This document shows, in pieces, positions 23,914-26,605 of a stretch of 64,000 bases of DNA. The stretch covers positions 62,001-126,000 of the forward strand of contig JAKZES010000001.1 of NCBI GenBank assembly GCA_022548915.1, in the 5' to 3' direction. The position numbers and the translations under genes were made by a program. Position 1 is the first letter of the stretch, and each line of letters starts with the position of its first letter. The DNA comes from Verrucomicrobiaceae bacterium E54. Its GTDB lineage: Bacteria; Verrucomicrobiota; Verrucomicrobiia; Verrucomicrobiales; Akkermansiaceae. Under the pieces are notes generated by a model. That model did no database searches and was not told the DNA's origin. It saw nothing but the letters and a program-made list of their open reading frames with translations.

Positions 23914-24798
23914 ATGACCGAAGAAGTCAACAAGTCCGCTACCGAGGGTTCCGAAGACCGGATCATCCTCGATTGGCACCGCAACGACCCGGAGCAACGC
24001 CTGGGCTTCAATGGTGGTCGTTACACGAACCCGCACAAGGGTCTTTGCTTTGGTATCGCGTTGCTCCTCACGCTGCTTTTTTTCGCCGTATTGATTTTCA
24101 CAGCGCCGAGGCTTTCCTGGCTGGAAGGATTCGCTGATATTTTCGTCAATCGAGGTCCTACCCAGTATTTTGCGGTGCTGTTTTTCTTTTGGGTCCTGGC
24201 GATGCTGGCGATGAAGAAGCGCAAGCTTGGGTTCCAGATGAAGGCCTTCGAGCTACCGGTTTTCCCCGCCGATGCTCACTTTGTCCTGACACCGGATACC
24301 GCGCAGGATGTGACTCGGAGGATGCACGACATGGTGGATTCGCCGGCGCACTTTGCTGTTCTGAGTCGGGTCGAACGTGCGCTTTCGAATCTTGAGAATA
24401 TCGGACACACCGCCGACGTGACCGCAATTTTGAAAGATCAGTCCGAGAACGATGAATCCCAGGTAGCTGCGAGCTATGTTCTGGTGAACGGGCTCATGTG
24501 GGCGGTGCCGGTCCTCGGTTTTATCGGGACGGTTCTCGGCTTGAGCACCGCCATCGGCGAATTTGGCAACACCCTGAAGCAGGAGGGGGATTTCTCGGGG
24601 ATTAAGGAGTCACTAACCGGTGTTACCGGGGGGCTTGCGACGGCCTTCGACACAACACTCGTTGCACTCGTCTTGGCATTGGTCCTGCAACTGGTGATCT
24701 CGTTCGTCCAGAGTCGGGAATCCGCGTGGCTTGATGCTTGCAACGAATATTGCAGTCGGCAGTTGGCCAGTCGGTTGCGTTTGCGTCAAATTGATTGA
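23914..24798 (+). CDS. MotA/TolQ/ExbB-type proton/ion channel protein
   Basis: NGLMWAVPVLGFIGTVLGLSTAIGEFGNTLKQEGDFSGIKESLTGVTGGLATAFDTTLVALVLALVLQLVISFVQ is diagnostic of this fold. Confidence 0.85.
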   Translation: MTEEVNKSATEGSEDRIILDWHRNDPEQRLGFNGGRYTNPHKGLCFGIALLLTLLFFAVLIFTAPRLSWLEGFADIFVNRGPTQYFAVLFFFWVLAMLAMKKRKLGFQMKAFELPVFPADAHFVLTPDTAQDVTRRMHDMVDSPAHFAVLSRVERALSNLENIGHTADVTAILKDQSENDESQVAASYVLVNGLMWAVPVLGFIGTVLGLSTAIGEFGNTLKQEGDFSGIKESLTGVTGGLATAFDTTLVALVLALVLQLVISFVQSRESAWLDACNEYCSRQLASRLRLRQID

Positions 24799-24800
24799 GC

Positions 24801-25670
24801 ATGCGTTCCATTCGGGCAGCTCTGGGGAGTCGACCGGCATCCGCTTTCCTCTCGTTCCAAGACATCATCATGTCGGTGACGGGGGTTGTCATCGTGATCG
24901 CTCTTCTACTCGCCATTGAGATCGACCGCCTTCCGGAACGTGCCTCGCCACCAGGGGAAATTTCTACTGACTCGGACGTGGTCGAGGTCACCCAAGAAAT
25001 GCTCACCAAGGTGCTCGACGAATTGGTGAAGGCGGAAACCCGACTCCAAGCGCTTCTCCTCGCTCGCAGTGAGTCGGAAAGTGCCGATGAGATTCAGGCA
25101 GAAATCGAACGGTTGGAGCGGGAGATCGAAAGGCTCGCCGGAGAAGAAGTAGTCGGAGCGCCCGATGAAGACGTGGACAAGTTGGCTCTTCGCTCAAAAG
25201 GTGTCGAGATCCTCAGGTTGCGAAATGAAATGGAGGATTGCCGTCGTCGGCTTCGCGAGGCACAGGAGCAAATCACCGCACAAGGGCCGGATCTCAGGAC
25301 CCTTGAGGAACAGGTGAAGGCGGCGGAAGCTGCCGTGGCGGCGGCAAGGTTGAAGGGAAGCAGAATTCGTCTGATGCCTGCCAAGTCGGACACGACCAAG
25401 GAGCCTGTGATTGTCGTTTTGTCCCGCACAGAGGTGGTGCTGATGCGATTCGATCATCCTGAGCCCATTCGCGTTCAAAGCCTTACTGGCCTCAATCGGA
25501 TCCTGGCAGACATGCGTTCGACCGAACAGTACTTCGTCCTTTTTGTGAAACCGTCTGGTACTGGTCGGTTCGAGCAGGTGCGACAAGCGGTGATCGGACT
25601 TGGTTTCGAGGTGGGATACGATGCCGTTGACGAGGATGTTGAGATTGTTCTGGAAAGGGGGGAGGAGTGA
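24801..25670 (+). CDS. MotB/ExbD/ZorB-like single-TM coiled-coil protein A
   Basis: N-term FLSFQDIIMSVTGVVIVIALLLAIEI; coiled coil; C-terminal domain EPVIVVLSRTEVVLM...YFVLFVKPSGTGRFEQVRQAVIGLGFEVGYDAV. Confidence 0.65.
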   Translation: MRSIRAALGSRPASAFLSFQDIIMSVTGVVIVIALLLAIEIDRLPERASPPGEISTDSDVVEVTQEMLTKVLDELVKAETRLQALLLARSESESADEIQAEIERLEREIERLAGEEVVGAPDEDVDKLALRSKGVEILRLRNEMEDCRRRLREAQEQITAQGPDLRTLEEQVKAAEAAVAAARLKGSRIRLMPAKSDTTKEPVIVVLSRTEVVLMRFDHPEPIRVQSLTGLNRILADMRSTEQYFVLFVKPSGTGRFEQVRQAVIGLGFEVGYDAVDEDVEIVLERGEE

Positions 25671-26605
25671 AGCGCCGCCTCCATCTGAAGGGCAACGAAT
25701 CTCTCGATCTGATGCTCGACACACTGTCGAACGTATTCGGGGGGATTATCCTGATTGCGTGCCTGCTGGCCCTCATTCCGCGGCACGACAGCCTGACGCC
25801 CATTTTGGAGATTCAGCAAACCAAGGGGGAGATGCTGGAGCGACGCCTTGCCGCGGCGAAGGGTCAGCTCGAGAAAGTGCTGAAGATGATCGCCGATCAG
25901 GAGGACGCAGAGGGACTGGAAAATCCGGAGCTCGCCATGCGGCGGCAGCAACTGAGGGAACTCGCCGAGCAGCTTCGGGAAGAGAAGAAGATCCGTGAAG
26001 ACGCCGAGTATTCGGATGCCGAATTCGAGTTGTTGGCGAGATCTGGTGATCCGGAAGAGATGGAGCGCGAGGTTCAGCGGCTCAAGCGACTGGTCGCCGA
26101 GGCGGAGGGCAAAGCCAAGTCCATCGAGGAGAAATCAGAATTCCTCACCGCGAGACTGGAGGCTCTGAAGTCTGAGGTCGAAGACCTAAAGGACGGCATT
26201 CGGGAGGAGTTGCGCTTCCCGCGAGAGCGTCGAACGGCCAAAGGCCCGTTCCCGGTGATTGTCTGGAGTAATTCGATTTACCCGCTGCACACTGGGGCCG
26301 ACTTTGCCGCCAATCCTGCAGTAAGGCGACTGGAGCTTCCGGAGTCAGAGGGGTTTCTGGCACGGCCCATTATGGGTTCGGGCATCGAAGAACCGTCAGA
26401 TTCGGGGCCATTTATGGCAGCACTGCGGAAGGCGAAGGAAGAAAACCTCTACGTGACGATCTACCTTTACCCCGATTCCCACAAAATCTTCAGGAAGCTG
26501 AAATCGGCGCTGTTTGAAGCGGGGATTGCCTACGGGATCGAGTTCGTCGAGCGAGACCAAAACTTGGCGTTTGGTCCGGATGGCACGAAACCTCCGGAGC
26601 TATAG
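25667..26605 (+). CDS. MotB/ExbD/ZorB-like single-TM coiled-coil protein B
   Basis: GTG start overlapping the previous TGA (GTGA). N-term NESLDLMLDTLSNVFGGIILIACLLALI; coiled coil; C-terminal FPVIVWSNSIYPL...LYVTIYLYPDSHKIFRKLKSALFEAGIAYGIEFV. Confidence 0.65.
   Translation: MKRRLHLKGNESLDLMLDTLSNVFGGIILIACLLALIPRHDSLTPILEIQQTKGEMLERRLAAAKGQLEKVLKMIADQEDAEGLENPELAMRRQQLRELAEQLREEKKIREDAEYSDAEFELLARSGDPEEMEREVQRLKRLVAEAEGKAKSIEEKSEFLTARLEALKSEVEDLKDGIREELRFPRERRTAKGPFPVIVWSNSIYPLHTGADFAANPAVRRLELPESEGFLARPIMGSGIEEPSDSGPFMAALRKAKEENLYVTIYLYPDSHKIFRKLKSALFEAGIAYGIEFVERDQNLAFGPDGTKPPEL

What the first reader, a model, noticed from the sequence alone, without database searches (positions are those of the whole stretch)
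23914..26605. MotA/ExbB-like channel paired with two non-identical MotB/ExbD-like subunits
Seen: diagnostic LGFIGTVLGLSTAI...LTGVTGGLATAFDTTLVALVLAL in the channel protein; the next two coupled ORFs each have a short N-terminus, one TM segment with an acidic residue at or just before it (SFQDIIMSVTGVV; LDLMLDTLSNVFGG), a coiled coil and a C-terminal domain. Neither has an obvious peptidoglycan-binding OmpA domain. Inference: a 5:1:1 asymmetric stator-like complex, distinct from Zorya (5:2 ZorA/ZorB with OmpA-type ZorB).
Basis: partly seen in the sequence, partly recalled or inferred. Interest (0 to 1): 0.8.

Follow-up and report, generated by a model that had tools for sequence, protein, structure and literature searches.

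The report
GTPase-linked membrane motor, two unlike shafts
A bacterial gene set encodes an ion-powered membrane motor that nearly always carries two different central-shaft proteins instead of two copies of one, and it comes with an on/off GTPase switch; this looks like an uncharacterised, widely shared kind of cell-envelope machine in Verrucomicrobia, Planctomycetes and their relatives.

Summary
Window 23914-26605 (+) encodes a divergent MotA/ExbB channel (A) and two homologous but distinct single-TM partners (B1, B2). They are the last three genes of a conserved seven-gene operon, 15223-26605: FHA-like/DO-GTPase, GAP1-N2, a large bitopic protein (CC3), GYF-TM, A, B1, B2.

Of 71 loci with enough downstream DNA, in about five phyla, 70 carry both B1 and B2. 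B1 and B2 split on one tree branch (SH-aLRT 100). The TM-entry Asp is in 74/74 B1 and 71/72 B2. All 24 phylum genomes with this A also have GAP1-N2. Two sister A+B+B' families mostly replace the B1-position Asp while B' keeps it, which favours one ring holding both B's.

It is not Zorya: no ZorA tail, OmpA-type domain or ZorC/D/E. The 5:1:1 stoichiometry is plausible but not demonstrated. Two B genes per A has precedents: Myxococcus AglR/Q/S, and ExbB-ExbD-ExbD in this same genome.

New is the tight link between a two-B stator and the DO-GTPase/GAP1-N2 system, absent from the main text of the paper that defined those systems. Best reading: a GTPase-gated, ion-driven envelope force transducer. 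The biological role is unproven.

The parts
15223..17010 (+). FHA-like + DO-GTPase (TRAFAC) cytoplasmic switch, 595 aa, Walker A GAPTSGKS
   Evidence: weak PF19993 DO-GTPase2 24.4 bits (cut-off 27) and FHA-like N-terminus; Walker A at residue 283; orthologues in the same place in related operons
17017..19962 (+). GAP1-N2 protein, 981 aa, one TM at residue 324, large C-terminal part predicted periplasmic
   Evidence: PF20013 E 5e-19, 69 bits against cut-off 24; hydropathy
19971..22874 (+). CC3: 967 aa bitopic protein, TM at residue 370, no known domain, core component
   Evidence: no confident Pfam hit; clustered relatives in 67 loci
22884..23897 (+). GYF-like domain + multi-TM protein, 337 aa
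   Evidence: PF14237 weak, E 0.02; several TM segments; related GYF-TM genes in many loci
23914..24798 (+). A subunit: MotA/ExbB/TolQ-like channel, 294 aa, four TM by hydropathy, pore threonines T206 and T248 invariant in the alignment of 20 relatives
   Evidence: PF01618 E 6e-9; alignments; motif equivalence to TolQ T145/T178
24795..25670 (+). B1 subunit, 291 aa (or 289 aa from ATG 24801), TM-entry Asp23
   Evidence: Asp in 74/74 relatives; structure model pLDDT 80, C-terminal domain about 95
25667..26605 (+). B2 subunit, 312 aa, TM-entry Asp18 in the motif LDTxxNxFG
   Evidence: Asp in 71/72 relatives; homologous to B1, hhalign E 3e-19; model pLDDT 74
13638..15143 (-). divergent GYF_2 + TM + trypsin-like protease, 501 aa; possible accessory, not part of the conserved core
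   Evidence: PF14237 and PF13365 above cut-off; weak relatives, possibly through the GYF domain alone, in 3 of 80 loci

Best explanation
This is a GTPase-controlled, ion-driven envelope motor. Five A subunits form a ring; the TM helices of one B1 and one B2 sit together in its pore. The B1 Asp23 and B2 Asp18 alternately take ions from the ring of A threonines (T206/T248), which turns or tilts the ring against the B1/B2 shaft. The B1/B2 coiled coils and periplasmic heads carry the movement into the periplasm, where the large parts of GAP1 and CC3 are predicted to lie. The cytoplasmic FHA/DO-GTPase, with GAP1, switches or positions the motor. Shown: the genes, their order, the two-B pairing, the conserved Asp and Thr residues and the tie to GAP1-N2. 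Inferred: the 5:1:1 ratio, ion conduction, the coupling route and the GTPase gating. The role most likely is envelope work (surface, wall or secretion) rather than dedicated phage defence, with low confidence on that last point.
For: A is a PF01618 member with invariant Thr at the TolQ T145/T178 motif positions; those threonines and TolR D23 form the proposed proton path in TolQRA (PMC12583513). B1 and B2 are homologous in register but separated by one branch with support 100. 70 of 71 eligible loci have both. Asp is in 74/74 B1 and 71/72 B2. In sister A+B+B' families the B1-position Asp is Ser in 9/12 (type II) or Cys/Asn/Ser/Ala in 12/12 (type III), while B' keeps Asp in every one located; an Asp-less B could hardly power a homodimeric motor, so both B's probably share one ring. 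All 24 genomes with A also have GAP1-N2, against 49 of 295 overall. GTPase and GAP1 are each found in 29/32 loci with long flanks. No further gene is shared widely across the loci.
Against: No multimer model, stoichiometry or conduction data. Two homodimeric complexes (A5B1_2 and A5B2_2) are not excluded. B1 and B2 show no significant sequence match to ExbD and no significant fold match in the PDB. L073 and L058 lack a detectable B2. GTPase gating rests on gene association only.
Confidence: 0.5

Rival explanations
1. Two symmetric motors share one A: separate A5B1_2 and A5B2_2 complexes with different periplasmic partners.
For: Both Asp residues are kept in this family, and the solved relatives cited are 5:2 with two copies of one B (PMC12583513, PMC11890865). 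The literature leaves the same question open for AglR/Q/S (PMC9389320).
Against: Strict one-to-one pairing and the Asp-less B in two sister families. In L071 the B2 Asp is Gly while B1 keeps Asp.
Confidence: 0.27
2. A Zorya-like anti-phage system: the GTPase/GAP1 pair senses infection and the stator triggers a response. (This concerns the role and can be true together with either subunit arrangement.)
For: GAP1-N2/DO-GTPase neighbourhoods were proposed as biological conflict systems (PMC7159879). A has weak hits to ZorA models. Distribution among close relatives is patchy. A GYF-trypsin gene lies next to the operon.
Against: No ZorA tail, OmpA-type B, ZorC/D/E or variable effector. No informative PADLOC hit for the other core genes. 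The A tree largely follows phyla, and the gene set is constant.
Confidence: 0.22
3. Gliding or surface-motility motor analogous to Myxococcus Agl-Glt: a GTPase positions a one-A, two-B stator that pushes on envelope adaptors.
For: AglR with AglQ and AglS is a MotA-type A with two MotB-type B's that powers gliding (PMC9389320). Here a GTPase, GYF proteins and bitopic proteins accompany the stator.
Against: The GTPase is of another family (TRAFAC, not Ras-like MglA, from general knowledge). No Glt homologue beyond a weak, low-complexity GltJ hit. Motility of the hosts is unknown here.
Confidence: 0.15
4. An ordinary ExbB-ExbD-ExbD type energiser for outer-membrane transport.
For: The same genome has ExbB loci with two ExbD genes.
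Against: B1/B2 are about 300 aa with long coiled coils, do not match PF02472 and have no evident TonB-like gene beside them in the window. The operon is tied to GTPase/GAP1.
Confidence: 0.06

Closest known systems
Myxococcus AglR/AglQ/AglS gliding stator
   Same: one MotA/TolQ-type A with two different MotB/TolR-type B's, each with a TM Asp
   Different: B proteins there have TolR-like PG-binding domains (PMC9389320); the driving GTPase is MglA (general knowledge), not DO-GTPase/GAP1; different gene set
DO-GTPase/GAP1-N2 systems (Kaur et al. 2020, PMC7159879)
   Same: GTPase + GAP1-N2 + GYF-TM or GYF-trypsin proteins, reported in planctomycetes
   Different: no MotA/ExbB/TolQ/ExbD component in the main text; here it is a fixed component, and no FNIII protein was found
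Zorya ZorAB
   Same: MotA-type A and single-TM B with a critical TM Asp, non-flagellar
   Different: ZorA has a long cytoplasmic tail and ZorB a Pal/OmpA-type PG-binding domain, 5:2 with one B (PMC11890865); all absent here
TolQR / ExbBD
   Same: pore Thr pair and B Asp at equivalent motif positions; possibly similar periplasmic head topology
   Different: ExbB/TolQ have three TMs (general knowledge); one short B kind in the solved complexes; no GTPase operon

Membership tests
MotA/TolQ/ExbB channel family (PF01618) | profile match above the curated cut-off over the pore helices | tested here: met
   36.1 bits against 22.9
MotA/TolQ/ExbB channel family (PF01618) | pore threonines equivalent to TolQ T145/T178 | tested here: met
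   T206 and T248 invariant among 20 relatives, equivalent columns invariant in a second, diverse set, motif equivalence
Zorya | ZorA long cytoplasmic C-terminal tail | tested here: not met
   A is 294 aa and ends about 30 residues after TM4
Zorya | ZorB with OmpA/Pal-type PG-binding domain | tested here: not met
   no OmpA hit in B1, B2 or 17 relatives of each
Zorya | ZorC/D or ZorE partner genes | tested here: not met
   no such PADLOC hit in the operon or its upstream neighbours
ExbD/TolR family (PF02472) | profile match of B subunits | tested here: not met
   B1/B2 not found by PF02472 in the genome search; hhalign not significant
ExbD/TolR family (PF02472) | TolR-like periplasmic fold | tested here: inconclusive
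   similar strand/helix order, but Foldseek has no hit at E<=0.001; TolR 5by4 is rank 11 for B2
DO-GTPase/GAP1-N2 system | GAP1-N2 domain protein next to a DO-GTPase | tested here: met
   GAP1-N2 69 bits; adjacent GTPase with Walker A but DO-GTPase2 just below cut-off
DO-GTPase/GAP1-N2 system | FNIII-repeat component | tested here: not met
   no FNIII hit in the seven proteins
AglRQS-type two-B stator | one A and two different B's, each with a TM Asp | tested here: met
AglRQS-type two-B stator | descent from the Agl lineage and link to Glt genes | not tested
   no Agl reference sequences were compared
Heteromeric A5B1B2 stator | both B's in one A ring | not testable with these tools
   no multimer prediction; indirect support only

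The most novel reading that the evidence does not exclude
PVC-group bacteria hold a whole class of inherently asymmetric A5-B1-B2 stators. In some lineages only one of the two B subunits carries the ion-binding Asp, so the motor works with a single acidic site or with two unequal ones. In the GTPase-linked family described here, both sites are kept and a dedicated GTPase/GAP1 switch controls the motor.
Probability: 0.45. Interest if true: 0.82.

Novelty: new variant of a known kind. Interest (0 to 1): 0.64.

Why it matters
Solved stators of this family are 5:2 with two copies of one B, so how asymmetry and the number of acidic sites set stepping cannot be separated. A family with two obligate, distinguishable B's allows each Asp to be mutated alone, and sister families already lack one of them. 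It also gives the computationally predicted DO-GTPase/GAP1-N2 systems a testable energised partner.

Tried and rejected
Zorya membership: tested and not met. Fold matches for B1/B2 in the PDB and for B1 in the viral library: none significant. Profile search of B1/B2 against PDB sequences gave only coiled-coil noise. Profile comparison of B1/B2 with the genome's own ExbD proteins: not significant, although the best B1 alignment pairs the Asp motifs. A first genome-contig scan with the single A protein found nothing, probably because the patterns were too specific. Conserved accessory or defence genes around the operon: none widely shared beyond the seven. PHROGs: no hit. The window's upstream genes 10903-13406 have no relatives at the other loci. 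The regexes used for the sister-family Asp counts were written from observed sequences, so some members were counted by eye.

Full report
OBSERVATION. The three genes exist as described. A (23914-24798) is a 294-residue MotA/ExbB-family protein (PF01618, 36.1 bits, cut-off 22.9) with four hydrophobic segments. B1 (24795-25670) and B2 (25667-26605) overlap their upstream neighbours by a few bases, as translationally coupled genes do. The TTG start of B1 overlaps the A stop; relatives begin at the residue corresponding to ATG 24801, so that start is more likely. Each B has one N-terminal TM with an Asp at its cytoplasmic entry (B1 Asp23, B2 Asp18), a coiled coil and a C-terminal domain. The models give the B1 C-terminal domain pLDDT about 95 and the B2 domain about 90.

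OPERON. The finding's coordinates cover the last part of a co-directional operon, 15223-26605: an FHA-like protein with a TRAFAC-type GTPase (DO-GTPase2 just under cut-off, Walker A GAPTSGKS), GAP1-N2 (69 bits, cut-off 24), a 967-residue bitopic protein without known domain (CC3), a GYF-like multi-TM protein, A, B1, B2. The same seven genes in the same order occur in two genomes of another family of the same order, downstream of a trpB-like gene; one of these, G047, encodes P0077, named Prosthecobacter sp. SYSU 5D2.

TWO B SUBUNITS. Profile comparison aligns B1 and B2 in register over nearly their whole length (probability 99.2, E 3e-19); coiled coil contributes, but the TM motif and the C-terminal domain align too. 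A B1 profile also finds the window's own B2 C-terminal domain (E 2e-4). In a tree of 40 B1 and 40 B2 sequences the two groups are split by one branch with SH-aLRT 100, so the pair looks like one old duplication rather than repeated ones.

IS THE PAIRING CONSERVED? A genome-contig scan with a diverse A alignment gave at least 572 encoding stretches; the 80 best were kept. They come from Verrucomicrobiota, Planctomycetota, Lentisphaerota, Kiritimatiellota and Thermodesulfobacteriota, and include isolates such as Victivallis vadensis DSM 14823 and Botrimarina colliarenosi Pla108. Of 71 loci with at least 2 kb downstream of A, 69 have exactly one B1 and one B2, one has two of each, and one (L073) has only B1. 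A smaller set from the phylum search agrees, with L058 as a second exception. These are the best-matching loci, so they are not a random sample.

RESIDUES. The TM-entry Asp is in 74/74 B1 and 71/72 B2; the exception, L071, has Gly in B2 and Asp in B1. In A, T206 (GFIGTVLG) and T248 (TAFDTTLVAL) are invariant among 20 relatives, and the equivalent columns are invariant in a second, diverse set. They fall at the motif positions of TolQ T145 and T178, which with TolR D23 make the proposed proton path (PMC12583513; alignment). Ion conduction is therefore likely, but it is an inference. Several database entries for B1 start at a later Met (for example P0129, P0155) and so lose the Asp.

LINK TO THE GTPASE SYSTEM. 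In 295 genomes of the phylum the A family is sharply bimodal: 25 matches above 370 bits in 24 genomes, the next at most about 220 bits. All 24 genomes have a GAP1-N2 match, while 25 others have GAP1-N2 without this A. GTPase and GAP1 are each found in 29 of 32 loci with 9 kb or more on both sides. CC3 clusters in 67 loci, and no eighth gene is shared widely. The paper that defined DO-GTPase/GAP1-N2 systems notes GYF-trypsin and GYF-TM proteins in planctomycetes, but its main text never mentions MotA, ExbB, ExbD, TolQ or a proton channel (PMC7159879). Its figures and supplements were not available, so earlier sight of these genes cannot be ruled out. A search for later papers using these names found no description of a stator.

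SISTER FAMILIES. The weaker A matches lead to other A+B+B' clusters. In type II (12 loci) the B1-position residue in the shared pattern X-six-residues-G is Ser in 9 and Asp in 3, and B' has Asp in the 11 located. In type III (13 loci) it is Cys, Asn, Ser or Ala in 12 of 12 located, and B' has Asp in 13 of 13 (a few counted by eye). Where one B has no acidic residue, a motor made only of that B is hard to imagine, so the two B's probably share one ring. This is the best indirect support for a mixed ring. It comes from relatives, not from the window's own family.

WHAT IS NOT NEW. Two B genes per A has precedents: Myxococcus AglR with AglQ and AglS, whose pairing is unresolved (PMC9389320), and plain ExbB-ExbD-ExbD clusters in this same genome at C241, C55 and C111.

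ZORYA. ZorA has a long cytoplasmic tail and ZorB a peptidoglycan-binding domain, in a 5:2 complex with one kind of B (PMC11890865). Neither feature is here and no ZorC/D/E is present. Weak ZorA hits are explained by the shared channel core.

MECHANISM AND ROLE. Most likely a GTPase-gated, ion-driven force transducer: the B1/B2 shaft carries movement into the periplasm, where GAP1 and CC3 have large predicted domains. The A tree mostly follows phyla (7 changes, minimum 4), and the gene set is constant. That fits an old envelope function better than an exchangeable defence cassette. However, among the nearest relatives the operon is patchy (3 of 56 genomes, own included), so defence or another accessory role stays open.

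LIMITS. No multimer model, no experiment, no significant fold match for the B heads, and no comparison with Agl sequences.

Noticed in passing
L205-L214, L063, L065, L067: Type III A+B+B' clusters: short B (about 165-220 aa) with Cys/Asn/Ser/Ala where Asp is expected, B' with Asp; often a gene of about 650 aa nearby, in some loci ending in a secretin-like TNLLIFVTPHI motif.
   Followed up: partly
L066, L155 (own genome C175), L195-L204: Type II A+B+B' clusters: A of about 370-485 aa, some with an N-terminal zinc-ribbon-like motif; B usually with Ser (FPFLSILACLIG) and B' with Asp (SLMDAxTNVV).
   Followed up: partly
own genome C241:10848-11741, C55:34804-35558, C111:235449-236217: Ordinary ExbB loci in this genome also carry two different ExbD genes in tandem.
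   Followed up: partly
window 13638-15143 (-): GYF_2 + TM + trypsin-like protease divergent from the operon; weak relatives at only 3 of 80 loci.
   Followed up: partly
window 10903-13406 (+): Three unknown genes, two with a predicted TM or signal segment and coiled coil, upstream of the GYF-trypsin gene; no relatives at the other loci.
   Followed up: partly
L049 11526-12569, L052 2795-3877, L054 10658-11695: In Lentisphaerota-type loci a further N-terminal-TM protein with a Gly-rich linker follows B2; could be a TonB/TolA-like transducer.
   Followed up: no
L071 (B2) and L056: Natural B2 variant with Gly instead of the TM Asp (LLLGPMCNTFGG), while its B1 keeps Asp.
   Followed up: no
P0129, P0155, P0168, P0169: Public B1 gene models start at an internal Met just after the Asp motif, so the key residue is lost in those entries.
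   Followed up: no
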